Origin: a virus
Strand: one strand, 5' to 3'
Length of the DNA stretch: 56,018 nt
IMG/VR virus record: IMGVR_UViG_3300049445_000092
Span: 1 to 56,018 of that record
The first letter of the stretch is position 1, and each line of letters begins with the position of its first letter. The notes under the pieces are model-generated. The model had not been told where the DNA came from, made no database searches, and saw only the letters and a list, made by a program, of their open reading frames with translations. A program made the position numbers and the translations under genes. Positions 35,402 to 53,955 of this stretch are shown one piece after another.

Positions 35402-36676
35402 TTACTGGGTGACCGTGTTGCAGAAGAGGTCGGGGCGGAACCACATGATGCCCACCCGCTCCTCACACACGATGAGGGTCTGGTTCGCCTCTGCGTACCG
35501 CTCCTGGTACACCTGCGTCGAGACCATCATCCGGTCAAGGATCATCCCGCCGTTCTGGAAGTCGCCCACCAGGCAGTGACCCGCGGCGTAGACGCGCGAG
35601 CGGTAGGTGGGAAGGCCCCAGACGGTGAGCGGGATGGCGTTGAACGGCGTCCCAGCGTCGAATCCACCGGTGGTCGGTGCCCGCTTGGAGAACATCCGCC
35701 AGGCGTCGGCCGGGTTGAAGATGACGGCGTTGGGCGCCCCGTCCTGGCCTTCGATCTGAGCGATGGCCTGCGCGATGGTCTGGGCCGTGTCCGTTCCAAC
35801 CGCCGCTTGGCTCAACAGACCGGGGACGTTCAGGATTCCCTGGAGGTCGGGCCACGTTCCGGTGCCAGAGAGGAACTGCTGGTCCTCCTTCAGGCGGATC
35901 AGATACGGGAGCCTTTGGTTCACATACGCCATGACGGCGGGACCGTCTTGGAACATCTGCTTGGAGACCACCAGCGTGGCCGCGATCACCGTCGGCTGTG
36001 CGTTCTGCGGGCTGAAGGAGAGCGGGGACACCGGCTTGTTGGCCGCTTCCGCCACGGTCCCGGCGCCACCCGTTGTCTCCAGCGAGACCGGGTTCAGCTC
36101 ACGCACATAGGGGACCGACGCCAGCGTGGTGTTCATGGTCGGGAGCAGGTCCCGCATGAACAGGCGCGCCTGGCGCGGCGTGGGCGGAATTGGCTGGCCG
36201 ACGGGGTTCAATCCGACGGTGCCGCTGCCCTGGTCAGTCATCGGGCCGCTCGGACCCCAGACGTTGATGGACGACACCCGCTGTCCGGGCATCGGGAGCA
36301 GCTCGGCGATGGTGCGGCCTTGGGGGAAGTCGAAGGATCGGGCACCGTGGTCCTTCGACCCGATCCCGGCCAAACCGCCATCGAACCAGCCCTTCATGTC
36401 CTCGTCGCGGAACAGCAGCTCACCGAAGCCCTCGCGCTGGTGCTCGTCCCCGGCCATGTCCGCCGTGGCGGCGACGCGGGCGTTACGGGCCGTGCGCTCT
36501 TCGTCCCAGCCGTGGATGGAGATCAGGCTGTCGAGCAGTTCGACCTCGTTGGACAGCGACCGCAGGCGGTCAGGGTCAGTCTGCTCCGCTTCGGAGAGGT
36601 CGTTCAGCTCACCGCGCAGCTCTTCGCCGCGGCCGTACAGCTCCTCCAGGTTCAGATTCCGGGTCTTGGTGGACAT
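35402..36676 (-). CDS. Major capsid protein, HK97 fold
   Basis: A 424-residue protein of the phage major capsid family. Residues 1-100 are helical and charged, like the delta-domain scaffold cut by the prohead protease. The rest contains the family landmarks: GFGELLFRDEDMKGWFDGGL as a linker, MRDLLPTMNTTLASVPYVRE, PLSFSPQNAQPTVIAATLVV, KEDQQFLSGTGTWPDLQGIL, and the C-terminal strand IVCEERVGIMWFRPDLF. The ATG has a GAGGTG site. A gap of 87 bases upstream has no clear promoter. Confidence 0.9.
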   Translation of the reverse strand: MSTKTRNLNLEELYGRGEELRGELNDLSEAEQTDPDRLRSLSNEVELLDSLISIHGWDEERTARNARVAATADMAGDEHQREGFGELLFRDEDMKGWFDGGLAGIGSKDHGARSFDFPQGRTIAELLPMPGQRVSSINVWGPSGPMTDQGSGTVGLNPVGQPIPPTPRQARLFMRDLLPTMNTTLASVPYVRELNPVSLETTGGAGTVAEAANKPVSPLSFSPQNAQPTVIAATLVVSKQMFQDGPAVMAYVNQRLPYLIRLKEDQQFLSGTGTWPDLQGILNVPGLLSQAAVGTDTAQTIAQAIAQIEGQDGAPNAVIFNPADAWRMFSKRAPTTGGFDAGTPFNAIPLTVWGLPTYRSRVYAAGHCLVGDFQNGGMILDRMMVSTQVYQERYAEANQTLIVCEERVGIMWFRPDLFCNTVTQ

Positions 36677-38883: not shown

Positions 38884-39953
38884 GACCGCGCTCCCTTCAG
38901 CCAGGCGTTCAGCCAGCGCTCGGCGTGCTGCTCGTAAGTCAGAGATTCCATGATGGCACGGCCCTGCTCGGACATCTCGTTCCGCCGTGCTTCGTCGCTC
39001 ATCAGACCGTCCAGCTCCTTCAGCCAGCGCGCCGGGTCCTTCGCCAGGCGCCCGATCCCCATGGCGTGCAGCCGCTTGTTGTCGGGGATCGGGGACATCA
39101 CCACCGGGATCCCGAGTGATGCGAATTCCATCGCCTTCAGGCAGGACTTGGACTCGTTGAACTCGTTGAGCTGGAGTGGGACGATGCCCAGCGCGAACCG
39201 GGCCATCTTGTAGGCGTACTGGACGAACGGGATCCAGCCCCCCGTGGTCGACGGCGCGGTGGGCAGCTTCAGTGCTTCCTTCACGCCCTGGCCGTCGCCG
39301 ATCACGCTGAAGCGCCAGTCCGGGTGGCGTTCGAGCGCCCACGACACCGCGCCGCCCGTAGCCTGGAGGTCTTCGGGGTGGGTGCGCAGCGTGCCCGTCC
39401 AGCCCATCGTGGTCGGCTCTCGGCGGCTGGCGATCTTGAGGTAGTGCTCAGGCACCAGATTCGGCAGCAGAACGCCGTGGCCGAAGCCGTAGGCGTCGTA
39501 GAGGGCGGGCGTGCTGGTGGTCACCAGATCGGCCCGCTTGCACGCCTCGGTGATCCACCGGTAGTTGTTGACCCCGCTCTTGCGGTAGTAGTCGTGGGCC
39601 ACGTTCTTCATCTGGATGCGGTCGAAGCGGTCGTCCACGTCGACCACCGTGCGGATCCCCTGGCGCTGATAAAAGGGGATGACCTGGGCGATCATCTTCT
39701 GGGACGGGCGCTGGAAGACCACGACATCGGTCTCCAGGGCCGTCGAGAGCAGCCCCAGCAGGCGGACGTAGTCGGGGGCGAACGGCCGCTGTTCGGTCGG
39801 CTCCCATCTCTGGGACCAGAAACACTTCGGGCCGTCGTTGTCGATGACGACATCGGCGCCCTGATCGATCAGGCAGCCGCCCGGAATCCGCAGCCGGTAC
39901 TGACTGACGCCATCGTTGTCACCGCCCGCCGGGAAGAGGGTGACTCGGGCCAT
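38880..39953 (-). CDS. Glycosyltransferase (GT-B, family 1/4-like)
   Basis: A 357-residue protein with a GT-B-like layout: VTLFPAGGDNDGVSQYRLRI, then TVVDVDDRFDRIQMKN, a MGWTGTLRTHPEDLQATGG strand, a middle IPFVQYAYKMARFALGIVPL, and the C-terminal NESKSCLKAMEFASLGIPVV, where the E of the family's E-x7-E sits. It uses a nucleotide sugar and a still unknown acceptor. It follows the protease gene after 9 bases. Confidence 0.8.
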   Translation of the reverse strand: MARVTLFPAGGDNDGVSQYRLRIPGGCLIDQGADVVIDNDGPKCFWSQRWEPTEQRPFAPDYVRLLGLLSTALETDVVVFQRPSQKMIAQVIPFYQRQGIRTVVDVDDRFDRIQMKNVAHDYYRKSGVNNYRWITEACKRADLVTTSTPALYDAYGFGHGVLLPNLVPEHYLKIASRREPTTMGWTGTLRTHPEDLQATGGAVSWALERHPDWRFSVIGDGQGVKEALKLPTAPSTTGGWIPFVQYAYKMARFALGIVPLQLNEFNESKSCLKAMEFASLGIPVVMSPIPDNKRLHAMGIGRLAKDPARWLKELDGLMSDEARRNEMSEQGRAIMESLTYEQHAERWLNAWLKGARS

Positions 39954-39962
39954 CGCCCGACG

Positions 39963-41237
39963 TTAGGACCGGCGACCCCGCCTTGCCAGCATCCGTTCGG
40001 TGCGCTCTTGCAGCTCGCTGACGGTGGGATCGTCGCGTCGGGCCAGGTCCAGCACGCTCGGTGTCGGTTTCAATCCGACTTTCCCCGCTGCGCTCATCAG
40101 CGTCTTGGCCGCTGACCGCAGATCGTCGTCGGAGGACCCCTTGACGTGGCCGATCATCTTCATGGCGCTGTCGACGCCGTCCTTGTTGATGCTGCCATCG
40201 GGATTCTTGTACGGCAGCTTCTCGTCGCCCGGCAGGGCACAGGCGGCGGCGTAGTCCTTGTAGTCACCCTTGACCGGATTCCACCGCAGCTGGAGCGCCT
40301 GCTCGGCTGTCGGGATGTCGAGCCCGATCGCTTCGGCGGCGACGGTGGACGCCTCCGCCCCGGCCCGGTAGAGCGCCAGGGCCTGGACAACCTCGTCGGG
40401 CAGCCCGTCCACGGTGACCCCGTCCAGGTAGATCTCGGCAGCGCGACAGGCCAGGGCGGCGTTCTCGACGGCGCTGGAGATCCCCTTCTCCTCGCGCTGG
40501 AGGTACGCCTGCATCTCGTCGTCGTCGGTCGCTAGCACGATGGACATAGCCGACACCCGCTCGGCCAGCTCGGGATCGTTCTCCAGCAGGGACGTGCGGA
40601 TCTCGTCGGCCGTCGGCGGCGTGAAGACGCGGCCACCATCGGATGTGGCCGTGATGTGACCGGCCGCGGCACGGGACTGGAGCATGGCGTTGCCCACTTC
40701 CCGGTCGATCGTGCCATCCCGCATCGCTTCCACGATCTCGGCGTCGTCCAGCTCCATGACAGCTTCCTCTCTGATGCTCACGGCCCCGGCGTCGGGGATG
40801 GATCCGAACGTCACGGGCGAGACCTCGCGCATCCGGGCCTTCACGAAGCGCTTGGCCCCCCGGACGTTCGGGTGGGGGATCGACTTCTCGTTGTCGAAAC
40901 CGAAGCTGGCTGCCTTCAAGGTGCCGTCGGTGTACTGGCTCCAGGCCCGCCGGGCGTTCGGGACATCGTCCAGGTTGGCGAAGCGCGTCACGACCTCGTT
41001 CACCTTCGGCAGGACTTGGGCGCGGATTCCGACTCCGATCGGATCCTGCACGTTGTGCATCCACACCATGACCGGGAGCTGTTCAGCGAAGGAGCGCTCG
41101 AAGCAAGTGCGGGCGAAGTCGGTCTTGTGGGTGTCGATCCGTTCGTGCGGGAAGTGGAAGACGACTTCGTGGTTGCCGCTGTCGGCGTCCGATCCCGCTA
41201 CATCGTGGATCTCACCGATGGAGTCCCTGGTCTGCAT
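39963..41237 (-). CDS. Prohead protease, HK97 family
   Basis: A 424-residue protease that matures the capsid. VMVWMHNVQDPIGVG contains catalytic-type His61; LKAASFGFDNE contains Ser111; the usual barrel strands lie between and behind. The C-terminal third is an extension with YKNPDGSINKDGVDSAMKMI, seen in other phage proteases, perhaps a scaffold part. It is separated from the capsid gene by three sugar genes, which is unusual. Confidence 0.85.
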   Translation of the reverse strand: MQTRDSIGEIHDVAGSDADSGNHEVVFHFPHERIDTHKTDFARTCFERSFAEQLPVMVWMHNVQDPIGVGIRAQVLPKVNEVVTRFANLDDVPNARRAWSQYTDGTLKAASFGFDNEKSIPHPNVRGAKRFVKARMREVSPVTFGSIPDAGAVSIREEAVMELDDAEIVEAMRDGTIDREVGNAMLQSRAAAGHITATSDGGRVFTPPTADEIRTSLLENDPELAERVSAMSIVLATDDDEMQAYLQREEKGISSAVENAALACRAAEIYLDGVTVDGLPDEVVQALALYRAGAEASTVAAEAIGLDIPTAEQALQLRWNPVKGDYKDYAAACALPGDEKLPYKNPDGSINKDGVDSAMKMIGHVKGSSDDDLRSAAKTLMSAAGKVGLKPTPSVLDLARRDDPTVSELQERTERMLARRGRRS

Positions 41238-41259: not shown

Positions 41260-41427
41260 TCAGTCGCCTTTGGCTGATACCGGCGGCTCCATCCCGTGGG
41301 GTGGCAGCTCAGAGCCGGGATCGAAGTCGTCGGGGAACCACCAGGGCAGCCCGTTGGGCTTCACACCCCGGTCGCTCGGCGCAGGCATCCCCTCTTCGTC
41401 ATTCGGCTCATCGGGCGGATCGGGCAT
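41260..41427 (-). CDS. Small acidic/Pro-rich hypothetical protein
   Basis: A 55-residue, Pro- and Asp-rich protein (PDPPDEPNDEEGMPAPSD). The ATG has a strong AGGAGG at 7 bases and overlaps the end of the giant gene by 20 bases. Probably disordered. Function unknown. Confidence 0.55.
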   Translation of the reverse strand: MPDPPDEPNDEEGMPAPSDRGVKPNGLPWWFPDDFDPGSELPPHGMEPPVSAKGD

Positions 41428-44400
41428 AGAAGCCTCCTGCATCCTGCTTGACGTAGACGTGGGTCATCCCGCCCACCTTCTCGATCTTCTGGATCACGAA
41501 CCGGCCTCCGGTGACGGTCTCGATCTCATGGGGAGAATTGCTGAAGTTCCCGATGTCCAGCGTAACGGTGCCCGATGGGGCGTGGAATACGGTATCGCCA
41601 CCCCAGCCGAGATCGGGGTTGGTCGTCCAGCTGTCGACCGGCATGTCGATGGTGTCGCCCGGTCCCTTCGGGGTGCCGTCAGGCCGGAAGAACATGTGCT
41701 GGTACCAGTCCTGGCCTGGCTTGCTCTGGATGAAACGGTGGACAGAACTCTTGTTCGGAATCGCCTTGGTCGATACGGCGTTGATGAACGCCCGTGCCTG
41801 CACGGCGCCGCTGCTCATGTTCGTGCCCTTCGACTGTTGCCGCCAGATCCGGCTCAGCTCGTTGACGAAGTCGTTACTGGACTTGTGGCGGTAGTAGGTC
41901 GTGAACTGCTTGATCCCGGCCAGCTCTTCGGCGTTGAACTTGTGCTTGACCTGGAGCGCGTTGGTGTTGGCGACGAACCCCGCGGCGCCCGGCTTGATCC
42001 CGGTGGTCGGCGTGTGCTTCTCCAGCGAACTCGGGCTGACCTTGACCGTGGAAATGATGCTCTTGGAACTGGACTTGGCGAAGTTGTTCTGGTCGTTGAA
42101 GTCCACCGCCGCGCGCTTGGCGCCCTGCGCCAGACCAGCGTGAGCGGCATTCCCCATGATGTCGGTGGTCTCCAGCGTCTGCGCCTTGGAGATATGGGCT
42201 TCGGCCATCGCCTGCACGTCGGGCGCTGATGCCTGATTCGTGAGCATCAGATGCATGGCCTCGTCGTAGCCCTGGCCGATGTGCTCGTTATACGCCTGCT
42301 TGGACTCCTCGGTCGCCCCGGCTGGCGTCTTGCCGTGCGGGTTCGATTCGATGCCGCCGATTACCTTGACCGTCCCGGCGTCCCCGAGGTGCGGGATCGA
42401 CTCGTTGTACTTGCCGTTGGCGAACTCGGTGAGGAACGCCGCCTTGGTCTGCATGAACGCCTGGTCGGCGGCGCTCAGGTTCTGGACCTTCGCCTGGTCC
42501 TCGTATGCCTGCTCGAACCCGTTCTTGAGACCCAGCTCATGAGATTCCCCGGTCGTGTCGACCGGCGACGCCATGTACGCCTCATGCTGGGTGCTGATCT
42601 TCGTCGCCAGCTCGTCCAAGGTCATCTTCGCCCCGGTGGCCTTGCCGTTCTGGTAGGCCGTGATGTAGGCGGTCTGGTCGTGGCTCGGCAACTCGAAGGC
42701 CGGATCCTGCTTCAGCGCTTCCCAGCCCTTCGGCAGGTTCTTGTCGATCTTGACCTCGGCGTAGGTCGGCTGGGACTTGGACGCCTGCGGATCCCACGCC
42801 CCCGCCACGGGCTTCACAATGCCCGGTAGGCCCTGGACGTAGGGATCGGAGGATGTCACCCCGCTGTAGTCGTAGGCGGGCACCATGGGGATCGGGACAC
42901 CCACTGCTTCGGCCGCCGCGACGGTCTCGGGCTTGGGCGTCACCATCTTCGGCTCAGTGGGGAGCACCTTTGCCGCCGCTGCGTACCCGTGGGCCGTGCC
43001 GTAATACTGCGCCTTCATGGCCGGGGTCTCAGCCGTCTTCGCCTTCTTGTAGCCCTGGTTCGACGCCGCCGCCTTGATGTTCTGCTTCGTCTTGCCCGCC
43101 GCGTGCATCTCCTGGCCCTGCTTGAACGCCGCTTCGTGGGCAATGAGGTAGGCGCCGCTGTTCTCAGCGAACTCCGCGGGCACCTTGGGCGCTTCGTAGT
43201 GGAACGTGGGCGTTGACGGGATCGGCGTCATAGTGACGACGTTGGACGCGGACGGTGTCACTCCCAGCTGCTTCTGCATGGTCTGGACGCCCTCGGCCCA
43301 GCCGTGGCTCTTTCCGAGAGCGAACGCCGCGGCGTAGGGCTTGACCTCGGTCGCGGCGTGTTCCTCGAACTGATGGTGGTGATGTTCGACCAGATCCTGC
43401 AAGTCGGCCAGGGTCGCCGCGTCGGCTGTCAACGAGGACACGGTCTCCAGGGCCTGCGCTTTGCCCTTGTCGTAGTTCTGTTGGATCTCGGTCAGGGAGA
43501 ATCCGGGGCCTTCGGCAGCCGCCTTGAGGTCGGACAGCTCGCGCCCACCCGTCGATGGCCCACTGGGCGTCGCCTTGCCGGATGCTTTGTCGGCGACGAG
43601 GTGCATCTGATCGGCGGTGCCCATCAGCTCCGCCGCCTTGGCGTGATTCCCGGCGGCAAACTCGGACTCGGCCGACTTCATGATCGTGTTGGCGAGGTTG
43701 TGGACGTTCTCGGAGTTGATCTCCATGGTGGGCGGGGCGACGTTGGACTTGCCCTGCGCGTAGTCCTCGGGGAACTGGTTTGGCAGTTCGACCATCGACG
43801 GGCTCGTAAAGCTGGAAGAACCGCTCGGCGCTGGTCCCATCCCTTCGGCCACCTTCTTGAACAGCGCCGTGTTCGCCGCGTCGGCTGATCCCATGGAGAA
43901 CGCCGCGCCCTGGTAGTCGCCGTCCTCGTAGTGGCCTTGGGCGGTCTCCAGGGATGCTTCCTTGGCGTTCGCCAGCTGCTGCTGGGTCTCGGTCCCGTCG
44001 ATGATGCTGTTGATGTTGTACTGACCGTGCTTGAACTGGTCCTGGTAGGCCGGGTGCGTCGACAGGATCTGCTTGGCCTCGGCGTTGAACGCTCCGGGCA
44101 TGGCGGGCTCGCCCGACAGCGCCGCGGGAGCGCCCTTCTTCTGTGCCGCCGCCGCCTTGTACCCCTCGGACTTGCCCAATGACCGCATAGCCATCCCCCA
44201 GTCGCCCTTCTGGTGGGCGCCCTGGGCTGTCTTGTACCACTGCTGACCGACTGATTCGGCCTCCTGCGAGCTGATCGTCGCCGCGTCCGCTTGGGCCGCA
44301 TCGAATCCCCCGGCGAATACGGCGCTCTGGCCGGGGTAGTGCTCGCCCATGTTCTGAACGGTCAGCTCGGACTTCGGCCCGGACGGCGCTGACACCGAGA

Positions 44401-47400
44401 CTTGCGCCGCTTCGTCGGCCTTCTGGAGGGCCATGAGATCGGCGACCTCGTGCAGCGCGGCGGCGTGGCCGTGCGCCTGCGCGGCCTGCTTGAACGACGA
44501 CTCAGTACCGAGTGCCGCGTGCTGCTCGGCTTTCGCGGTCAGATCGTCGGCGACCATGTGCGTCCCTTCGGCGGTGTATGTGGCATTGACCATGCTCTCT
44601 GCCGCTAGTGATGGGTGGTCGATCTGAGCGACGTTGTGGTAGCCCGCCAGGTAGTCCTCGGGATACGCCTTGGCGAGGTACTCAGGTCCGGGCGGGCGAC
44701 CGGGCATGGCGGGCGCTTCATGGGACGCCTTCTGCGCCGCCGCTTCGTCGGCCTGCTTCACTTCGACCTTCTGGGCCAGCTTGTGCAGAGCGTCGGCCTC
44801 ACCGATCTTCACCGCCGCGTGAGCGTGCTGACCCGCCACGAATGCGTTGTGTGCGTTCTGCTCGGCATTCGTCGCCTGTTCGTGGATGAACTGAGGGGTG
44901 ATCGCTGATCCTGGCAGCAGCTCGGTGTTCACCCCACCGAAACCCGTGGCGTACTCCTCGGGGAAGTGCTCCTTGATGTTGGTCATGGTGACCTCGGCCG
45001 CGGGCGGCGACACGCTGACCTTCTGGGCCTCACCGGAGGGGACGCCCGTCTTCCCGATCTCGTTGGCGACGGTGTAGTGCGCCTTCGCCTGACCGAAAAG
45101 CTTGGCGTGCTCGGCCAGATCACCGGATTCCTTGGCCTTCTTGGCGTTGGCGTAGAGCTTGGATCCGCGCGCCTTCACCTTCACCTTGATCTGGCCCGGT
45201 GTCAGACCGTTGGCGGCGTGGACCTCAGCCATCTTCTTCGCCGCGACCTGGCCCTCCAGGTGGCCCACTTTGAACTTCGTGTAGAGCCCACCACCTGCCT
45301 TGATGTAGGCCGACAGATCGGCGAGACCGACGGCGGCCGTACTGGGAACGGCGGCGGCGGGCGCAGGGACAGCCACAGTGGCCTCTGCGACGACGTGCGG
45401 GGGTTGCTTGGTCTCGACCTTCGGCGCTTCGACCTTGGGCGGGGTCGGCTCGCCCTTCAGCTTCGCCACGATGGCCGGGATCTGGGCCTGGCGCTCCTTC
45501 AGCACCGTCAGCCACGGGGCCGACACGCTCTCGGGGATGCCCGCTGCCTTCCAGCGCTCGGCCACCTTGTTGAGATCGAGCTTCGCCGCGGTCTCCAGGG
45601 ACGCTGCCGCTGTCGGGTCGTTCATGGAGCCGTAGAACTTCTGGCCCTGCCCGCCGTTGCGGATGGACTCGACATCGGTCCACGCCTTGCCCGGAGCGAA
45701 GGACGGCTTGGCGACGCCCGATCCTCGGAACGCCATCGCCCCGCCCTGGTCGATGCGGATGACCTTGCTGCCGTCGTCGGAGAGGGTGAGGTTCGATCCG
45801 CTGGGCCAGTCCCCGGCGAAGTCGTAGTTGCTCGTCAGGGCGTCGATCCCGAATCCCTCACGCATGATCTGCTTGTGCATGTTGCTGTCGGGATTGACCG
45901 GGTTGATGTTGCCGACGGCGTGGCTGGCGACACCGTGGATGCCGCCTGCGTTGTCAGCCTTGACGATGGTGACGTTGGGCGCCAGCGTGTGCGGCAGCAG
46001 TCCGCTGTCCGACGCCTCGTGATACACCTCGTTCGCCGCCACTTCGCTGTAGGCGTGCTCGGCTGACTTGGATTCCTTGATGAGGTAGCGGTCGCCGCTG
46101 CCCTTGTGGGTGTACCAGTTGCCGGGGTTCGATCCCGGCGACTTGGCGCCCTTCTCGTACTCGGCGCTGCTGGCCGACGGGAGATGGGTCGGCGTGTGTT
46201 CGGTGACCGGTGTGACCTCATGGGCCTTGGTGCCGTAGTTCCCGGCCTTGCTGGCGAACTCATGGAGCTTCGCCTGTTCGGCCGCGTGGGTAGTCGCCTC
46301 GGCTTCCTTCTTGGCGTCGGCGTGGATGCTGGCCCCGTGCGCCTGGGCGGCGTACTGCATGGCCTTGTGCAGGTCCCCCGCCTTCTGGGCCTCCTGCGCT
46401 AGCTCGGCGAAATGGTGGGCCGCTTCGGCTGCCTGGTGATGGGTGGCGTCAGCCTTCTCCAGGTCTTTCTCGGCCTTGTCCGCTAGTTCCTGGTACGCCT
46501 TCGGCGAGATCGGGATCCATCCGTGTTTGAAGTCAAACCGCAGCTGGAGCATGTCCTCCAACCAGGCCCGCTTGCCCTGCTGCTTCTTCTTTTTGGCGAG
46601 CAGTTGCTCCCAGTTGAGGTTGGCGTCGGGGTTCGTGTCGGCCTTGTGCGATCCGGTCCACGTCGGCTTCGGCTTCGTCGGCTTGGATGTCGTGGCCTTC
46701 GGTGGCTTGGGCGGCTTCGGATGGCCCTGCTCGGGGCTCGGCGTGGCGACGGGGTTGTGGACGACAGGCTTGACTTCGGGCGCGCTCGGGAAGTTGTGCG
46801 GCTGCGGTGGGGTCGGCGTGCCGCCCTTGTTCAGCCGGTCCATCTCGGCCACGGCGGCGTCGAGCACGTTCAGATCCCGCTGCACGCCGCCGGGGATCGT
46901 CCCCTGCTGGATCCGGTCGCGCGCCTCCTTCGGCGTGAACCACCCGACGGCGTTGGTCTCGCCGTTGGCGATCACCTTGGTGTAGTCGGGCTTCGCCCCG
47001 GCGTCCTGGCTCAGGTAGAAGTAGTTCGCACTCGATGACCCGTAGCCCGGATGGTGCCCGCCTTCGTGGGCGACGCCCTTCTTGTCTGTCCACGGTGCCT
47101 CGTCGTAGGACCCGTCGGCGTGGTGCTGGTTGCCGTGCTTGTCGACGTAAGGCTCTTGGATGTGCGGCGTCTTGAAGGCGCCCTTGAGGTGGCTGACGAT
47201 GCGGGGAACGCGCCCGGTCTCCTCCAGGGCCTCGCGCTGGGCCACGGCGACGTGGGACTCACCGGGATCGGGTCCGCCCTTGGCGAAGGTCCAGTGGTAG
47301 CCGAGGTAGTGGTTCTTCGGCTCGCGCAACAGAACGTGGGTGCCCTCCTTGTTGAAGATCACCGCTCCGTAGCGGGGGTTGTGGCCGATGGGCCATTCCC

Positions 47401-48949
47401 CTTCGGCGTGGAGATCCCGCCCGGCGTAGTGCTTGGAGCGGTCGGGATGGAGTCGCCCCTTCTTCTGGTACGGATGGAGCAGATTCCACTTGGCCCAATC
47501 GCGTTTCTCGAGAAACTCGGCCCGCTGGTTGGCGTGATGCTGGTAGGCGGCGTCGGCGATCTGGTTGAACTCGTCAGGCGTGAGCATCCCGGTGTTGCGG
47601 GCCTGCTCCACTTCGCCCCAGGTGCCGGGCTGGTAGTGCTCCACGGCTTCGATGTCGTTGTAGTCGGCGTCGGCCTGATCGAAGTAGTCGGGCTTGTCGT
47701 AGGTCCGGCTGCCCAGCGACTGGGCCAGCTCGTCCAGGCTGGTCTTGCCCGCCCGGTAGGCGTTGATCTGGTCGGTGATGTCGCTCTGCGGTGGAGTGCC
47801 GTCGTCGGCTCGGTGGGCCAGCTTCCTCGCGCTCCCGGTCTCGTTGATGAGCTTCCCGGCGTAGTTCTCGTTGTCGATGGTCAGCGTCTGGTCGAACCGG
47901 GGCTTCAACTCCTCGAACGCCGCCCGGTTCTTGGTCCGGTACTGCCCCGTCGGATCATTGCCCCCTGTGATGAGCCCTGAGGGCACGAACCGCCCGCCCA
48001 GCCCCTCTCCCTTCGCCAGGCGATTCTGACCGCCCCGGTGGCGCTGGGCCGCGTTCTTGGCGCTCTGGGCCGTCGAGACATCCACGAACGCCCCGGCGAC
48101 GTGGTAGCCGCCCATCTGGGTCGCCGCGTGCAGCGGGTTGATCCGCTTGTCCCCCGACTTCACGCTGTTGAGGGTCACGTCCCAGATGACGTTCTTGCCT
48201 TGGGCCTGGGCGCGCTGGGCCAGATCCTCGGCCAGCTTCGACGCCTCTTCGTGGACGAACGGATTCGCCTCTAAGGGGCTGAGGGCGTCGATCTTCGGGA
48301 TCATCCCCCGCTTCGCCATCTCGCCCTTGATGTCGTCGGGGTTGAGGATGAGGAAGTTCGACGGTTCGCCGACGCCGTGGCCCTTCTCGTCATAGCTGGC
48401 GTACTTGATGCCCAGCTTGTGGGCGACGCTGCCCCGGTGCTTGGCGTTCGTCCGCAGGATCGTGCTCTTCCCGGCGCCGCCGATTCCACCCATGACGATG
48501 GCCCGGCGGTCGTTCGGGACGTTCTTGGCCCGATCCTCCAGCTGCTTCAGGATCTCCTCTTGCTGGGCGCGCCGCGACGGGGTGTAGAGCCCCTCGACGC
48601 CGTTCACCTTGTCTTCGGAGATGTGGGTGCTGAACGGGGAGCGCAGGAGATCCTCGGTGCCGTGGCGGGTCAGCTCGAAGTCGACGTGCTTGCGGTGCTG
48701 GGCGTACTCGGCGTCGGTCATGTCCCGCTTGGCCGTGAAGACCTTGCCGTGGTCCATGGCGTCGGCCTTGGCGTGGAACCCGGCGATCAGATCCTTGTCC
48801 CCGAAGGATCCGGCCTTGTCCCCGAAGCTGGGCCTGGTCGGCTTGCTGACGCTGACGCTGGCGCCTTTGCCCGGCCGACGGCCCTTCTTCTGATAGGGGT
48901 GCTCCAGATTCCACTTGGCCCAGTCCCTGGACGACAGGGTGACCGTCAC
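41408..48949 (-). CDS. Giant polyvalent protein: zeta-like kinase, Nudix, kinase-like, repeats, ART-like
   Basis: 2513 residues, between portal and protease genes. Domains in order: P-loop kinase like zeta toxins (about 95-370, GGIGGAGKST at 154-163, Walker-B-like VIWDVTL near 255); full Nudix box (GGPDPGE...REALEETG, about 558-580); Pro/Lys linker; a HipA/PI-kinase-like fold (about 940-1170, YLIKES, SNYDFAGDWP, IRIDQGG); five 95-110-residue helical units (1323-1790) with FPE-D/E-Y; further helical parts; an ADP-ribosyltransferase-like end (R2405, SWTT at 2440-2443, E2475/E2477). RDWAKWNL-HPYQKKGR occurs twice, before the first and second domains. GTG start after GGGGAG, one base past the portal stop. 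Probably packaged and injected to modify host targets. Confidence 0.8.
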   Translation of the reverse strand: MTVTLSSRDWAKWNLEHPYQKKGRRPGKGASVSVSKPTRPSFGDKAGSFGDKDLIAGFHAKADAMDHGKVFTAKRDMTDAEYAQHRKHVDFELTRHGTEDLLRSPFSTHISEDKVNGVEGLYTPSRRAQQEEILKQLEDRAKNVPNDRRAIVMGGIGGAGKSTILRTNAKHRGSVAHKLGIKYASYDEKGHGVGEPSNFLILNPDDIKGEMAKRGMIPKIDALSPLEANPFVHEEASKLAEDLAQRAQAQGKNVIWDVTLNSVKSGDKRINPLHAATQMGGYHVAGAFVDVSTAQSAKNAAQRHRGGQNRLAKGEGLGGRFVPSGLITGGNDPTGQYRTKNRAAFEELKPRFDQTLTIDNENYAGKLINETGSARKLAHRADDGTPPQSDITDQINAYRAGKTSLDELAQSLGSRTYDKPDYFDQADADYNDIEAVEHYQPGTWGEVEQARNTGMLTPDEFNQIADAAYQHHANQRAEFLEKRDWAKWNLLHPYQKKGRLHPDRSKHYAGRDLHAEGEWPIGHNPRYGAVIFNKEGTHVLLREPKNHYLGYHWTFAKGGPDPGESHVAVAQREALEETGRVPRIVSHLKGAFKTPHIQEPYVDKHGNQHHADGSYDEAPWTDKKGVAHEGGHHPGYGSSSANYFYLSQDAGAKPDYTKVIANGETNAVGWFTPKEARDRIQQGTIPGGVQRDLNVLDAAVAEMDRLNKGGTPTPPQPHNFPSAPEVKPVVHNPVATPSPEQGHPKPPKPPKATTSKPTKPKPTWTGSHKADTNPDANLNWEQLLAKKKKQQGKRAWLEDMLQLRFDFKHGWIPISPKAYQELADKAEKDLEKADATHHQAAEAAHHFAELAQEAQKAGDLHKAMQYAAQAHGASIHADAKKEAEATTHAAEQAKLHEFASKAGNYGTKAHEVTPVTEHTPTHLPSASSAEYEKGAKSPGSNPGNWYTHKGSGDRYLIKESKSAEHAYSEVAANEVYHEASDSGLLPHTLAPNVTIVKADNAGGIHGVASHAVGNINPVNPDSNMHKQIMREGFGIDALTSNYDFAGDWPSGSNLTLSDDGSKVIRIDQGGAMAFRGSGVAKPSFAPGKAWTDVESIRNGGQGQKFYGSMNDPTAAASLETAAKLDLNKVAERWKAAGIPESVSAPWLTVLKERQAQIPAIVAKLKGEPTPPKVEAPKVETKQPPHVVAEATVAVPAPAAAVPSTAAVGLADLSAYIKAGGGLYTKFKVGHLEGQVAAKKMAEVHAANGLTPGQIKVKVKARGSKLYANAKKAKESGDLAEHAKLFGQAKAHYTVANEIGKTGVPSGEAQKVSVSPPAAEVTMTNIKEHFPEEYATGFGGVNTELLPGSAITPQFIHEQATNAEQNAHNAFVAGQHAHAAVKIGEADALHKLAQKVEVKQADEAAAQKASHEAPAMPGRPPGPEYLAKAYPEDYLAGYHNVAQIDHPSLAAESMVNATYTAEGTHMVADDLTAKAEQHAALGTESSFKQAAQAHGHAAALHEVADLMALQKADEAAQVSVSAPSGPKSELTVQNMGEHYPGQSAVFAGGFDAAQADAATISSQEAESVGQQWYKTAQGAHQKGDWGMAMRSLGKSEGYKAAAAQKKGAPAALSGEPAMPGAFNAEAKQILSTHPAYQDQFKHGQYNINSIIDGTETQQQLANAKEASLETAQGHYEDGDYQGAAFSMGSADAANTALFKKVAEGMGPAPSGSSSFTSPSMVELPNQFPEDYAQGKSNVAPPTMEINSENVHNLANTIMKSAESEFAAGNHAKAAELMGTADQMHLVADKASGKATPSGPSTGGRELSDLKAAAEGPGFSLTEIQQNYDKGKAQALETVSSLTADAATLADLQDLVEHHHHQFEEHAATEVKPYAAAFALGKSHGWAEGVQTMQKQLGVTPSASNVVTMTPIPSTPTFHYEAPKVPAEFAENSGAYLIAHEAAFKQGQEMHAAGKTKQNIKAAASNQGYKKAKTAETPAMKAQYYGTAHGYAAAAKVLPTEPKMVTPKPETVAAAEAVGVPIPMVPAYDYSGVTSSDPYVQGLPGIVKPVAGAWDPQASKSQPTYAEVKIDKNLPKGWEALKQDPAFELPSHDQTAYITAYQNGKATGAKMTLDELATKISTQHEAYMASPVDTTGESHELGLKNGFEQAYEDQAKVQNLSAADQAFMQTKAAFLTEFANGKYNESIPHLGDAGTVKVIGGIESNPHGKTPAGATEESKQAYNEHIGQGYDEAMHLMLTNQASAPDVQAMAEAHISKAQTLETTDIMGNAAHAGLAQGAKRAAVDFNDQNNFAKSSSKSIISTVKVSPSSLEKHTPTTGIKPGAAGFVANTNALQVKHKFNAEELAGIKQFTTYYRHKSSNDFVNELSRIWRQQSKGTNMSSGAVQARAFINAVSTKAIPNKSSVHRFIQSKPGQDWYQHMFFRPDGTPKGPGDTIDMPVDSWTTNPDLGWGGDTVFHAPSGTVTLDIGNFSNSPHEIETVTGGRFVIQKIEKVGGMTHVYVKQDAGGFYARSAR

Positions 48950-48950
48950 G

Positions 48951-51848
48951 TCACTCCCCGCCAGCAACTACCGCGTCACCGACCGCCTGCGCCGCTTCGT
49001 AGGTGGCGCCCGCCTTCAGCGCGGCGAGATGAGCCGCGTTCGCCTGGGTCGCCATCTCGATGATCTTCGTGCTGACGCCCGGCGGCATGTAGGCAACCCC
49101 GCACCTACAGCCAATCGTCAAGTTCGCCGGGGCGCTGGGTTCGCCGGGGTGCATCATCGGGACCGGCGGGTCGGTCGGTGGTCCGACGGTGAACGGCATG
49201 TTGACGGCGCGCTCCTGGCGGTCGACTTCGACATGGCTCGGACGGGTCCGCTGGTCGTGGTGGGACAACCACACCTTCGAGCCGACAACGTCGGGAGGCA
49301 ACGTGCTGGCGTAGGCGTAGGCGGCACCGTTGAGCCCGCTGATCGCCTCGGTCTGGGCGATGGTGCGGGCCCGCGTCCGGGCCATGCCGAAGACGTTCTG
49401 GATCGCCGTCGCTAGCTTCTCCCGGCTGTCGCCCGCCACGACGCCCTTCGCTAGCGCCTGCTGGATCTGGTCGTAGATGGTGGCGGTGATCTGGGGACTG
49501 GTCTGGTTGGCCCGGCTGGTGATGTAGTCCTTCGCCGCCGCGATGGAGTTGTTCACCTCGATGGTCGGGTGGCCCAGCTGGCCGTGGACCGTGGTCGCCG
49601 CCAACCCGGCTGCGGCGCTGTAGCTCGGCGTGAGGGCCACGGCGGTCTGTCCGGTCCAGTGCCCCTGGTCGTAGATCGCAGCGGCTGAGGGAGGGATCTG
49701 GGCGGCTCCTGAAGCATCCGGGGGTGGTGGAGCAGCCCGGCGTCGCATCTGGGCGCCCCGCTTGCCGTTGAAGCGGGCCAAGGTCTCGCGCTCCTGGCGG
49801 GTGAACAGATCGGTGAGGGTCTGCTCCATCGGCCCGGCGACAGCGTCCACGTTCGCCAGGTGTGCCGTGCTGGCGCCCAGCAGGTGCTTGACGCTGGTGA
49901 ACTTGCTGGCGCGGAGCTTCGTGTCCGGGTTCGTGTGGAATCCGCTCTTGGCCTGGAGCGCCGCCCGGTGGATCTCGGCTGTGATCGGCTGGCCGCAGGC
50001 GTCGCAGTGATCGAGGTCGCTGCCCTGGAACAGATGCGGCTTCTTGGGCTTCGACAACGAACCGGGCTCGCCGATCTTCGGCAGCAGGGCCTGGATGCCG
50101 GGATCGGACTCGGTGACGCCCATGTCCTGGCGCTTCGACCCGTGGGACGCCTTGGCCTTGGCCTCGAACTCCGCGACGGCCGCGGCATATTTGGCTGCGG
50201 TGTCGGCGTGGACGCGCCCGCCGCCCGGATTGCGCCCGCTGGCGAAGATCTTGGCGATGGCGACGGCGTTGGCGATGGCGCTGGACTCGTCGTGGCCCTT
50301 CCTGACCATGGCGTGGGCCACGTCGCGGATGGGGAGCGGCAGACCGCCCGCCTTGGTGACCCAGTTCTTGCCCTTCCCGAAGGAGCTGTAGTCGTGGCGC
50401 TCCTCGGAACGCACGTCGATGGCCTGGCTGCGTCGGATCAGCTCACGCGCCAGCTGGACGCCCGGCAGCTCGGAGCGCGCCCCGCCCGCGGCAGCCGGGG
50501 TGGACGCCCCGATGTGGCTGGACTCGATGCCGACGCCCACGGTGCTGGTATCGGCGGGGCTCGTTCCCTTGCCCACGGTGGCGGTGTCGATGGCCGCGGC
50601 TCCGGGTTGCAGGCCCAGCAGGGCACCGATCTCCTGGGGGTTCTCGATCCCGTACTCGATGAGGTCGGCCACCGTCGGCGGCGTGATCGGGTTGGCCGGG
50701 CGCAGGGCGGCGACCTCGGACAGGTCGAACCAGCCGACTTCCCGGCCCAGCGTCGGGGCCAGGATCGTGTTGATCTGGCTCTCCAGCTCACGAATGAGAG
50801 GGAGCAGGGTGATGGTCCAGAAATTCCTGAACTCGCTGTCGGCGTTGGCGTAGGTGCGCTGGCTGGCGTTGCCGATCAGAGACATCGGGACACCGAGGGC
50901 GATGGTGATGTCGATCTTGGCCTGCTGGTTGATCTCGACCGTCTTGCCGTCGACCGCGTTCACGGCGAGCGGGGTGACCTGGATGGCGTCGCTGATCTTC
51001 GCCCCGGCGGGCACGTCGGCCTCGGTGAAGATCGTCCGGCCTGCGTTGTTGACGCCCGTGAAGAGCTGGAGGAACTGCTCCTCCCAGGCCCGCTTCTGGT
51101 CGGCGTCGGCGAATCTGGGATGGGTGACCATCGTCGCCCCGACCATGCCCCGCTTGATGAGGTTGGCCTGGTAGCGGTCCAGGCTGACTTGCACGTCCAC
51201 GATGTCCATGGCCGCTTGCAGGACGCTGATCGGCTGGCGCCAGTCCTCGGGTGAGGGGCGCCAGAAATAGGCGATCTGGTCGTTGCGGTAGCTCAGGTCG
51301 CCCTGCGGCGTGCGGTAGATGAAGCCGTCGAACCACTCCTGGGATCCGGCCCCGGTCGGCTTGGGCAGCAGGGCCTTGGACACCAGCGGCCACAGGCTGA
51401 CGATCTCGCTCGTCCGGTTGCCCGTCCGCTGGGTCTCCATCGCCATGCGCCCGTTCACGACGTACTGGATGATCTGCCAGCGCCAGAACGTGGCCGAGTC
51501 GGTGGTCGGGTTGGGGCCGCCCGGCGCCTGCGGTGTCGTCGGCCCCAGCAGCGTCGCCAGTTTGCAGAGCGGATCGGTCTGGCCCGGCATGGTGGGATCC
51601 ATCCCGGCTCGGAACGGCAGCCCGGCGATGACGCTGGCGATGGTGTCGACGCAGCGCATGACGTAGATCGACCGCTTGTACGCCTGCATGGTCTCGCCGT
51701 TGAGACCGAGATCGAAGTAGAGCGGCTGACCAGGCGCTGTAAAGGCGAGGGGTTGGGTCGACGCCAGGGCCTTGGATCCGCCGCTCCCCGCTGGCTTCAG
51801 ATTCCCGATAGCCGCCTTGATGGCTCGGGTCTGGAGATCGCTCGCCAC
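48951..51848 (-). CDS. Portal protein fused to a MuF-type domain
   Basis: A 965-residue protein. Residues 1-410 are an HK97-type portal (IYVMRCVDTIASVIAGLPFR, DQIAYFWRPSPEDWRQPISV, QLFTGVNNAGRTIFTEADVP, KIDITIALGVPMSLIGNASQ). Residues 494-575 hold KNWVTKAGGLPLPIRDVAHA, a small helical module found in several phages. A CDACG pair follows near 615. Residues 690-925 are a Mu F-like head morphogenesis domain (RTIAQTEAISGLNGAAYAYA, HDQRTRPSHVEVDRQER, GCRCG). Portal and MuF are usually separate genes. GTG start, 2 bases after the previous stop. Confidence 0.85.
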   Translation of the reverse strand: MASDLQTRAIKAAIGNLKPAGSGGSKALASTQPLAFTAPGQPLYFDLGLNGETMQAYKRSIYVMRCVDTIASVIAGLPFRAGMDPTMPGQTDPLCKLATLLGPTTPQAPGGPNPTTDSATFWRWQIIQYVVNGRMAMETQRTGNRTSEIVSLWPLVSKALLPKPTGAGSQEWFDGFIYRTPQGDLSYRNDQIAYFWRPSPEDWRQPISVLQAAMDIVDVQVSLDRYQANLIKRGMVGATMVTHPRFADADQKRAWEEQFLQLFTGVNNAGRTIFTEADVPAGAKISDAIQVTPLAVNAVDGKTVEINQQAKIDITIALGVPMSLIGNASQRTYANADSEFRNFWTITLLPLIRELESQINTILAPTLGREVGWFDLSEVAALRPANPITPPTVADLIEYGIENPQEIGALLGLQPGAAAIDTATVGKGTSPADTSTVGVGIESSHIGASTPAAAGGARSELPGVQLARELIRRSQAIDVRSEERHDYSSFGKGKNWVTKAGGLPLPIRDVAHAMVRKGHDESSAIANAVAIAKIFASGRNPGGGRVHADTAAKYAAAVAEFEAKAKASHGSKRQDMGVTESDPGIQALLPKIGEPGSLSKPKKPHLFQGSDLDHCDACGQPITAEIHRAALQAKSGFHTNPDTKLRASKFTSVKHLLGASTAHLANVDAVAGPMEQTLTDLFTRQERETLARFNGKRGAQMRRRAAPPPPDASGAAQIPPSAAAIYDQGHWTGQTAVALTPSYSAAAGLAATTVHGQLGHPTIEVNNSIAAAKDYITSRANQTSPQITATIYDQIQQALAKGVVAGDSREKLATAIQNVFGMARTRARTIAQTEAISGLNGAAYAYASTLPPDVVGSKVWLSHHDQRTRPSHVEVDRQERAVNMPFTVGPPTDPPVPMMHPGEPSAPANLTIGCRCGVAYMPPGVSTKIIEMATQANAAHLAALKAGATYEAAQAVGDAVVAGGE

Positions 51849-52335: not shown

Positions 52336-52453
52336 CGAGTACCTCTTCGATGAAGGCGTCCCACTTCTGGTCGTAGATGGCGTTCAGGCGCCGGGCGATG
52401 TAGTCGACTAACGACTGATCGCCCAGCCCCGCGGGGGCGGGCCGGGGTCCCAC
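52313..52453 (-). CDS. Very small hypothetical protein overlapping the terminase
   Basis: A 46-residue reading (GDQSLVDYIARRLNAIYDQK, then AFIEEVLGGP) that starts inside the terminase gene and links it to the next gene. The helical, charged look and its clean frame between two genes support it, but start and existence are not certain. Confidence 0.4.
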   Translation of the reverse strand: MGPRPAPAGLGDQSLVDYIARRLNAIYDQKWDAFIEEVLGGPPQPD

Positions 52454-53955
52454 ATCACCATCATCACGGCATCGCCTTCGTCGGGGCTTCGGCCCAGCCG
52501 CCTCACTAGCTCGTCCTTGCTCTCCACCACGATCTGGCCCTTGCTGTTGACCGACCATGTGGGCTCCGTGAGATCGCCTGTCAGCTGATCGCTGGGCGGC
52601 AAGGCTAGCTGTGGGTCGTACTGGGGATCCAGAAGCTCACGCAGGTGCCACCACGCCGCGCTGCGGACGTTGACGAACCCCAGCTCCCCGGAGCGGTCCC
52701 GCTTCTCGGACTTGGCCCCGGCGTGGAAGGCGATCACCCGGTAGTCGCCCATGTCTTCGGCCACGTTGTCGTAGACGCCCGCACCCAGCCCGTCGGTGTC
52801 GATCATGGCGTGGGAGCCGATGTTCGACTCCAGCAGGCCCACGACGATCCCTGAGGTGAACGTCAGCGCCTTGTGCTCGTAGCTACGGATCTCGGTGATG
52901 ACGTGGTCGTAGCGCAGCGCCAGCGCCGTCTTGTCGTCGCCCTGGCGGGCCACGTCCACGCCGATGAGGGTGAGCGGGCGCATCTCGTCCATCCGGCCTG
53001 AGTCCTGGTGATCCAGCCAGCGCTCGTTGGACGCTTCGACCCAGGACAGCGGGATGACGCCGTTCGTCTTCTCCTCGGCGAACTCGCCCAGCACCCGGTT
53101 CTTGTAGACAGCTGATTCCTCGCCCCACTGGCGCTTGCGCCGGTCGGCCCACTCCTGGGTCATCTGCCCCGCCGCGATCGCTTCGTCGCGAGTGACGTGG
53201 ATCGGATGCCAGTCCTCGAAGCCCGCCGCCCGGCGGTCGATGGCGAACATGCGACCGACCGGAGCACCGGGCGTGGACTTCAGCAGGGCGAACGCCTTGG
53301 TGGCTCCGATGATGTGGGTGACGCTGGCGTTGGAGAATGCGCCTTCGGCGGCGTCGAAGGTGGCGTCGGCGATGGCCTTGCCCTCATCGAAGCAGTACAT
53401 GATCTCCTGGCCGTGGGCGCCCTCGATCATGGCTGGGTCATCGCTGGCGACCGGGAACATGCTGCCGTACTCCAGATTCAGGCCCATCTTCAGATGCTCC
53501 TGGCGGGTGTACGGCTCGCGGCCCAGGCGGTCCCAGCGCAGGCGACGGATCCAGATCCCGATCTCGGGCCACAGGTAGTGCTGGAGCTGGCGCCACCCGC
53601 CCGCCGTGGTAATGCACTTCCAGTCGATCTCCAGGGCGTCACGGGTGTTGGCGAACCAGAGCGCGGCCAGGGCGAAGCCGGTGGTCTTGCCGATGCCGTG
53701 CGGGCCGCGGGTCTCCACGCGGTGGAACTGGTTAAGCATCTCCAGCTCTTCGGCCTGGTACGGCTTCAGCCCGCCGCCCTCGTCCCAGTCGATGCAGTCC
53801 TCGGCGAAGGCGACGGGGTCGGCGTAGTAGAGCTTCATGCAGCGCTTGAAGACGCCGCGCTTGGCGTGGAAAGCCCGCTGGTACCGGGTCCGGGCAAAGT
53901 CGCCCGCTTCGACGGTGACACTGGCCCCCTCAGGGGCCTGGCTGACCTGGCTCAC
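52408..53955 (-). CDS. Terminase large subunit
   Basis: A 515-residue packaging motor. The ATPase part has Walker A GPHGIGKTT (84-92) and Walker B MYCFDEGK (186-193); the nuclease part has the RNase H-like acids in IGVDVARQGDD (331 on) and IDTDGLGAG (385 on). It pumps DNA into the prohead and cuts it. GTG start, overlapping the previous gene by 26 bases. The likely small subunit is at the other edge of the window. Confidence 0.9.
   Translation of the reverse strand: MSQVSQAPEGASVTVEAGDFARTRYQRAFHAKRGVFKRCMKLYYADPVAFAEDCIDWDEGGGLKPYQAEELEMLNQFHRVETRGPHGIGKTTGFALAALWFANTRDALEIDWKCITTAGGWRQLQHYLWPEIGIWIRRLRWDRLGREPYTRQEHLKMGLNLEYGSMFPVASDDPAMIEGAHGQEIMYCFDEGKAIADATFDAAEGAFSNASVTHIIGATKAFALLKSTPGAPVGRMFAIDRRAAGFEDWHPIHVTRDEAIAAGQMTQEWADRRKRQWGEESAVYKNRVLGEFAEEKTNGVIPLSWVEASNERWLDHQDSGRMDEMRPLTLIGVDVARQGDDKTALALRYDHVITEIRSYEHKALTFTSGIVVGLLESNIGSHAMIDTDGLGAGVYDNVAEDMGDYRVIAFHAGAKSEKRDRSGELGFVNVRSAAWWHLRELLDPQYDPQLALPPSDQLTGDLTEPTWSVNSKGQIVVESKDELVRRLGRSPDEGDAVMMVMWDPGPPPRGWAISR

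What the first reader, a model, noticed from the sequence alone, without database searches (positions are those of the whole stretch)
41408..48949. A 2513-residue polyvalent protein with at least four enzyme-like domains
Seen: a perfect Nudix box (G-x5-E-x7-REALEETG), a P-loop GGIGGAGKST in a zeta-toxin-like layout, a kinase-like core with Lys, Asn and Asp motifs, five 95-110-residue helical units and an ADP-ribosyltransferase-like C-terminus (R, SWTT, E-x-E). Known: Iyer, Aravind and colleagues described polyvalent proteins of phages and conjugative elements that join such effector domains and enter the cell with the DNA. Inference: this is a very long example, made in the head operon between portal and protease, so probably packaged and injected. 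The set of zeta-like, Nudix, HipA-like and ART in one chain may be new. The Nudix could remove ADP-ribose or the products of the kinases.
Basis: partly seen in the sequence, partly recalled or inferred. Interest (0 to 1): 0.92.

Follow-up and report, generated by a model that had tools for sequence, protein, structure and literature searches.

The report
Giant phage protein with four enzymes
[quoted passage not shown] this matters because one of the four is a kinase family, unnamed in the libraries searched, that recurs in such proteins in hundreds of viral sequences.

Summary
On the minus strand, 41408-48949 is one intact 2513-residue frame that starts one base after the portal-MuF stop and precedes the prohead protease gene. 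Two domains pass Pfam cut-offs: a zeta-toxin-like P-loop kinase (122-352) and a Nudix hydrolase (524-596). Two that Pfam misses were tested by alignment and structure prediction: a CtkA/HipA-type kinase (920-1180, pLDDT 91) and a C-terminal ADP-ribosyltransferase (2310-2513, pLDDT 81), both with conserved catalytic residues. The helical repeats are real.

Best reading: a polyvalent effector, made with the head, packaged and injected, whose domains modify host targets early. Packaging is inferred: relatives of the kinase are fused to MuF (36 of 127 proteins), relatives of the zeta domain to portal or protease, and one related protein is annotated as particle-associated.

It is a new variant of a known kind. 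It is not unusually long (relatives reach 5183 aa), and Nudix+kinase+ART recurs in at least 14 other proteins; only the added zeta domain was unique here. The most interesting point is the kinase family: 457 IMG/VR contigs, no confident Pfam, PHROG or PDB sequence match. A specific Nudix-ADP-ribose role is not supported.

The parts
41408..48949 (-). polyvalent protein P, 2513 aa, GTG start; stop of portal gene is one base upstream (translational coupling likely)
48878..48928 (-). short motif DWAKWNLEHPYQKKGR, first copy (P 8-24)
   Evidence: similar W..WN..HPY motif twice in relative L010
47894..48586 (-). zeta-toxin-like P-loop kinase domain (P 122-352; Walker A 154-163)
   Evidence: Pfam Zeta_toxin 3.5e-11; 34% identity to Phrappuccino gp57; family alignment A7
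47453..47503 (-). short motif DWAKWNLLHPYQKKGR, second copy, just before the Nudix domain (P 483-499)
46847..47428 (-). Nudix hydrolase domain (P 508-701; Nudix box 558-579)
   Evidence: Pfam NUDIX 5.8e-12; 49% identity to L010
45410..46192 (-). CtkA/HipA-type kinase domain (P 920-1180; K958, E969, D1043, N1053, D1067)
   Evidence: alignments A1, A2; AF2 pLDDT 91.1, pTM 0.89; Foldseek CtkA TM 0.58/0.55
43532..44983 (-). five helical repeat units of about 95-110 aa (P 1323-1806), partial sixth before
   Evidence: leave-one-out HMM test
41411..42022 (-). ADP-ribosyltransferase domain, R-S-E type (P 2310-2513; R2405, S2440, E2475, E2477)
   Evidence: alignment A3, conservation, AF2 pLDDT 81.4, Foldseek 8za7 3.9e-9, Certhrax, C3 exoenzymes
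48951..51848 (-). portal-MuF fusion protein, 965 aa (context)
   Evidence: Pfam, PHROGs
39963..41237 (-). prohead protease, peptidase S78 family (context)
   Evidence: Pfam 6e-7
35402..36676 (-). major capsid protein, HK97 type (context)
   Evidence: Pfam Phage_capsid 1.5e-22
52408..53955 (-). terminase large subunit (context)
   Evidence: PHROG phrog_2 2.4e-21

Best explanation
P is a polyvalent effector of a tailed phage, probably of actinobacteria. It is translated from the head operon directly after the portal-MuF protein, is carried into the capsid at the portal vertex, leaves with the DNA at the next infection, and refolds in the host cytoplasm. There its enzymes act at once, before phage genes are expressed: the C-terminal ART attaches ADP-ribose to a host macromolecule (as T4 Alt does to RNA polymerase), the CtkA/HipA-type kinase phosphorylates a host protein, the zeta-like kinase phosphorylates a nucleotide-type substrate, and the Nudix domain cleaves an NDP-X or dinucleoside-polyphosphate compound. 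The helical repeats are spacers. Shown here: gene structure, the four folds, intact catalytic residues, gene position, recurrent fusion of related domains to head proteins. Inferred: packaging, injection, catalysis and targets.
For: Position between portal-MuF and S78 protease, one base after the portal stop. In L010, the nearest relative, the same Nudix-kinase-helical-ART protein lies downstream of portal and MuF genes and upstream of an S78 protease. Among 127 distinct kinase-bearing ORFs, 36 also carry MuF and 61 an ART. The zeta subfamily is fused to portal (L092), fused to S78 protease (L094), or a separate gene between portal and protease (L093). The best viral structure match of the kinase is a protein named phage portal (A0A6J5S481, 5.9e-14). 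The related kinase-ART protein of Yersinia phage fHe-Yen8-01 is annotated 'phage particle associated', as is its neighbour that Pfam identifies as a Nudix protein; a paper on another Yersinia enterocolitica phage uses that term for LC-MS/MS-detected proteins (PMC7316996). Catalytic residues conserved. Published precedent for the class: PMC5512222, PMC9503650.
Against: No virion proteomics for this phage. The source of the fHe-Yen8-01 'particle associated' note could not be read (no paper held). Neither the kinase nor the ART of P reaches a Pfam cut-off by itself. P itself has no MuF fusion. Moving a 2513-residue multidomain chain through a tail requires unfolding and refolding, which is not shown here.
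Confidence: 0.74

Rival explanations
1. P is packaged mainly as an anti-defence device: the Nudix and kinase domains remove or modify nucleotide signals of NAD- or nucleotide-based immunity (Thoeris-like and similar), and the ART and zeta parts are accessory. (A narrower version of the best explanation, so the two confidences overlap.)
For: Iyer and co-workers propose this role for phage Nudix and related domains (PMC9503650). Nudix lies 19-37 aa upstream of the kinase in 16 sampled loci, in several kinase lineages.
Against: The Nudix is nearest in sequence to Ap(n)A hydrolase and RppH, not to ADP-ribose enzymes. Half of the kinase proteins carry an ART, a macromolecule modifier, not a signal degrader.
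Confidence: 0.3
2. P is an internal head protein (scaffold, spacer or ejection protein) whose enzyme domains are relics.
For: Long helical repeats; position in the head operon.
Against: Catalytic residues of kinase and ART are conserved in nearly all relatives and the Nudix box is intact; domain sets change at least 14 to 17 times on the kinase tree, which suits effectors better than structural parts.
Confidence: 0.1
3. P acts late in the cell that makes it (lysis timing, superinfection exclusion, or modification of phage head proteins) and is not delivered.
For: Late-operon position alone cannot exclude it; zeta toxins act on the cell wall in their own cell.
Against: Repeated fusion of related kinase or zeta domains to MuF, portal and protease; particle-associated annotation of a relative.
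Confidence: 0.12
4. P is a toxin aimed at rival bacteria, carried by defective or full particles, like MuF polymorphic toxins.
For: MuF-linked toxins are described (PMC3482391); ART and zeta domains are common toxins.
Against: The window has tail, capsid, terminase and RecT genes of an ordinary phage; no immunity gene was identified next to P, although none was searched for systematically.
Confidence: 0.1

Closest known systems
Polyvalent proteins of phages and conjugative elements (Iyer et al. 2017, PMC5512222)
   Same: Several effector domains in one chain, encoded with head genes, with ART, zeta-like and kinase domains among the known modules; MuF- and portal-fused forms known
   Different: The kinases described there are protein-kinase-like, lack the C-terminal lobe, keep a His/Asp pair and come mostly from Verrucomicrobia-Chlamydia and Bacteroidetes phages; the kinase here is CtkA/HipA-like, with its own helical C-terminal part. 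The combination zeta + Nudix + kinase + ART is not mentioned in the passages read
IMG/VR relative L010 (2738 aa)
   Same: Nudix (49% over the domain), kinase (37%) and ART (28%), helical spacer, W..WN..HPY motif, portal and protease neighbours
   Different: No zeta domain; Nudix at the N-terminus; portal and MuF are separate genes
Kinase-ART proteins of Yersinia phage fHe-Yen8-01, Enterobacter phage phiT5282EW, Pseudomonas phage Jeremy and Morganella phage Mecenats66
   Same: Same kinase family plus C-terminal ART in one chain; a Nudix gene two genes downstream in all four
   Different: Nudix in a separate gene; no zeta domain; phages of gammaproteobacteria
Zeta toxin / PezT and polynucleotide kinase Pnkp
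   Same: P-loop kinase with related sequence (Pfam Zeta_toxin; PDB Pnkp1 4.9e-4, PezT 0.0044)
   Different: A distinct phage-head-associated subfamily; substrate unknown; no antitoxin identified
T4 Alt and VIP2-like MuF-ART fusions (PMC9503650; Microbacterium phages, PMC7302621)
   Same: R-S-E type ART, made with the head or fused to head proteins
   Different: P is not fused to MuF and carries three further enzymes
Helicobacter CtkA kinase
   Same: Fold of the kinase domain (TM 0.58/0.55)
   Different: 13% identity; CtkA is a bacterial proinflammatory kinase, not a phage protein

Membership tests
Polyvalent proteins (phage) | two or more distinct effector domains in one polypeptide | tested here: met
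   four enzyme domains
Polyvalent proteins (phage) | encoded among virion or DNA-packaging genes | tested here: met
   portal-MuF upstream, S78 protease downstream, capsid and terminase near
Polyvalent proteins (phage) | present in the particle and delivered to the host | not testable with these tools
   only indirect: fusions of related domains to head proteins, annotation of a relative
Zeta toxin / AAA_33 kinases | Pfam score above curated cut-off and intact Walker A | tested here: met
   43.4 bits against 22.3; GGIGGAGKST; lysine and several acidic and arginine residues invariant in 6 relatives
Zeta toxin (epsilon-zeta / PezAT system) | partner antitoxin, UDP-N-acetylglucosamine phosphorylation | not tested
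   no partner search and no assay; the name is by homology only
Nudix hydrolases | complete Nudix box GX5EX7REUXEEXGU | tested here: met
   G558-E564-REALEETG; the last hydrophobic position is Arg; Pfam 46.2 bits against 21.1
ADP-ribose pyrophosphatases | closest characterised relatives cleave ADP-ribose | tested here: inconclusive
   Ndx1 1.5e-6, RppH 0.0013, ADPRase 0.006; NudE model 0.0024, far below cut-off
HipA/CtkA-type kinases | kinase fold with Lys, Glu, catalytic Asp, Asn and metal Asp | tested here: met
   residues conserved 58-61 of 61; CtkA has the highest TM-score among the listed PDB matches
HipA/CtkA-type kinases | sequence-profile match to HipA or CtkA models | tested here: not met
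   no Pfam match for the window domain; one of 8 members HipA_2 at 0.0068; CtkA 0.18 in PDB sequence search. So: kinase of that fold type, not a proven HipA member
ADP-ribosyltransferases, R-S-E type | ART fold with Arg, Ser-x-Ser/Thr, Glu-x-Glu | tested here: met
ADP-ribosyltransferases, R-S-E type | Pfam ART model above cut-off for the window protein itself | tested here: not met
   no hit; relatives at the same place pass PF03496

The most novel reading that the evidence does not exclude
A previously unnamed family of CtkA/HipA-fold kinases is a mobile core module of virion-delivered multi-effector proteins in hundreds of tailed phages of many bacterial phyla, and in part of them it works together with the Nudix domain placed directly in front of it, so that phages inject a kinase-Nudix unit (often with an ART) that controls one nucleotide-linked host pathway.
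Probability: 0.3. Interest if true: 0.78.

Novelty: new variant of a known kind. Interest (0 to 1): 0.62.

Why it matters
Phages must act on the host before their own genes are expressed, and few injected enzymes are known in detail. This protein and its relatives give a defined list of catalytic domains to test, with catalytic residues named. A kinase family present in at least 457 viral contigs and 50 bacterial genome loci, unnamed in the Pfam and PHROG searches made here, would be a common way for phages to reprogramme hosts. The slot between portal and protease looks like a cargo site that could guide searches for other injected effectors.

Tried and rejected
Direct scans of IMG/VR with the whole protein and with the portal alone found no relative; the kinase alignment was needed. 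tblastn of helical repeats and of the ART alone against phages found nothing. A PHROG hit of residues 643-892 to a portal family (4e-4) lies on low-complexity helical sequence and was set aside as probably compositional. The idea that Nudix specifically accompanies ART was tested: 21 of 33 Nudix-linked kinases have an ART against 37 of 81 others, Fisher p = 0.10, and independent pairs on the tree are inconclusive; so it is not shown. A broad HP motif pattern was only weakly above shuffles (9 against 3.45); a strict form is specific. In one search the query was typed with wrong residues before the first motif; the result equals that and nothing rests on it. Some searches failed on input rules and were rerun in allowed form. 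Local HMM results were built from this sample itself; Pfam was run on a subset as a check.

Full report
What is there. The frame is on the minus strand, 48949 (GTG) to 41408, 2513 residues, with no internal stop. Its start lies one base after the stop of the portal-MuF gene. Third-position GC stays between 0.80 and 0.93 along its length, like the portal gene, so it is coding throughout. The window is an IMG/VR virus record of 56018 bases. Its other genes are those of an ordinary tailed phage: terminase, portal-MuF, S78 protease, HK97-type capsid, tape measure, RecT. Many of its nearest named relatives by portal are phages of actinobacteria, at about 25-40% identity over part of the protein, so the phage itself is far from anything cultured.

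Domains. Pfam finds a zeta-toxin-like P-loop kinase and a Nudix hydrolase, each well above its cut-off. Pfam finds nothing for the kinase-like and ART-like parts of this protein, so both were tested further. A tblastn search with the kinase-like part found 19 phage records. An alignment of eight relatives then found 457 related stretches in IMG/VR, of which 80 were fetched, and 50 in bacterial genomes. Over 61 relatives the residues expected of a kinase are nearly invariant: K958, E969, D1043, N1053 and D1067. AlphaFold2 gives a confident model (pLDDT 91.1, pTM 0.89). Foldseek returns kinases. The E-value list is headed by PknB at low TM-score, but the highest TM-score listed is to CtkA of Helicobacter (0.58/0.55), with Legionella LepB next. 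So the domain is a kinase of the CtkA/HipA kind by fold, with only marginal sequence matches to HipA_2 and CtkA.

The ART part was aligned with 40 relatives. The Arg (R2405) and the second Glu (E2477) are invariant, and the Ser of the S-x-T motif is kept in 40 of 41. The model (pLDDT 81.4) matches ADP-ribosyltransferases: Listeria 8za7 at 3.9e-9, Certhrax, C3 exoenzymes. Relatives at the same place in related proteins pass the Pfam ADPrib_exo_Tox cut-off.

The five helical units are real repeats. When each is left out in turn and searched with a model of the other four, units 5, 1 and 4 are found at 1.6e-12, 6e-9 and 5e-5, units 3 and 2 only at 0.016 and 0.059. A partial sixth unit lies before them. 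They look like a spacer; no function is claimed.

Relatives. The nearest is L010, a 2738-residue protein with the same Nudix, kinase, helical and ART parts, no zeta domain, and the same neighbours: portal and MuF genes before it, an S78 protease after it. The two kinases form a fully supported pair on a tree of 114 kinases (100/99; the tree row L090 is the same contig as L010). A second related phage, L091, has a similar portal, but its contig ends before the place of the giant gene.

Census. In 127 distinct kinase-bearing ORFs, 61 have an ART, 36 a MuF domain and 30 a Nudix domain in the same chain; 15 have Nudix and ART; ten or eleven further loci have a Nudix gene nearby on the same strand. 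The tree needs at least 14 changes for Nudix, 17 for ART and 15 for MuF, so modules are exchanged often. Nudix stands 19-37 residues before the kinase in 16 loci, some of them near-copies. Kinase ORFs in the sample have a median of 1300 residues and reach 5183, so 2513 is long but not extreme. Only the window joins zeta to the other three. Pfam, run on 17 other large kinase proteins, found no zeta domain in any of them.

Why packaging is likely. Related domains are built into head proteins again and again. MuF stands in the same chain as the kinase in 36 proteins. The zeta subfamily is fused to a portal (L092) and to an S78 protease (L094), and in L093 it is a gene of its own between portal and protease, the same slot as P. 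The best viral structural match to the kinase is a protein named as a portal. The Yersinia phage fHe-Yen8-01 record marks its kinase-ART protein and its Nudix neighbour as particle-associated. A paper on another Yersinia enterocolitica phage uses that term for proteins found by LC-MS/MS (PMC7316996), but no paper on fHe-Yen8-01 was held, so the source of that annotation is unverified.

How it probably works. Made with the head, carried inside it, injected with the DNA. Then ADP-ribosylation and phosphorylation of host macromolecules, with the zeta-like and Nudix domains acting on nucleotide-type compounds. The class and this logic are from PMC5512222 and PMC9503650. The targets are unknown. 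The Nudix domain shares its W-T-F-x-K-G segment with Ap(n)A hydrolases, and Ndx1 is its best solved relative, so ADP-ribose is one candidate among several. Nudix and ART do not occur together beyond chance, which speaks against a fixed ART-Nudix pair.

Comparison and novelty. The protein meets the testable features of polyvalent proteins. The kinases that Iyer et al. describe in such proteins are of another kind. In the held literature no description of this kinase family in phage effectors was found, but the library lacks most subscription papers and preprints. The finding is a new variant of a known kind. The kinase family is its most interesting part.

Limits. Local HMMs were trained on the same sample they count. 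The IMG/VR fetch kept the 80 loci closest to the window and is not a random sample. All functional statements are predictions from sequence and structure.

Noticed in passing
window P 8-24 and 483-499 (48878-48928, 47453-47503); L006, L009, L013, L047, L062, L076, L078: A short motif HPRx(1-3)DG[KRQ][FW] occurs 8 times in 1.24 million residues of ORFs, only in kinase-bearing giant proteins, after MuF, near the N-terminus or between modules; none in one shuffle. The window's DWAKWNxxHPYQKKGR looks like its counterpart. Possibly a packaging or cleavage signal.
   Followed up: partly
L091:9986-13774: The portal protein of a related phage contains an intein-like insertion in a conserved stretch (after YANADSEYR, ending EHN before TFWTL) and a ParB-like C-terminal part.
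   Followed up: no
L092:395-4189, L094:6771-8711, L093:4077-5039: A zeta-like kinase subfamily is fused to portal, fused to S78 protease, or a separate gene between the two: the portal-protease interval looks like a cargo slot.
   Followed up: partly
L130, L132, L143, L144 (Pseudomonas genomes): Proteins of about 560-773 aa combine the same kinase with a Nudix domain behind it, two of them with a weak ART match in front; whether they are prophage genes was not examined.
   Followed up: no
L003, L005, L007, L008: Four phages of gammaproteobacteria have a Nudix gene two genes after the kinase-ART gene, with a gene of about 160 aa between.
   Followed up: yes
L003, L005, L007, L008 (giant proteins): A repeated motif of about 22 residues, DGPKEGDxKxGxxGMLxFKNGxW, occurs one to several times between modules of the gammaproteobacterial phage proteins.
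   Followed up: no
window 36764-39953: A glycosyltransferase (PHROG match) and what looks like a nucleotide-sugar epimerase gene lie inside the head operon between protease and capsid.
   Followed up: no
L010:16194-18101: The S78 protease of the relative carries a DnaJ-type CXXCXGXG zinc domain.
   Followed up: no
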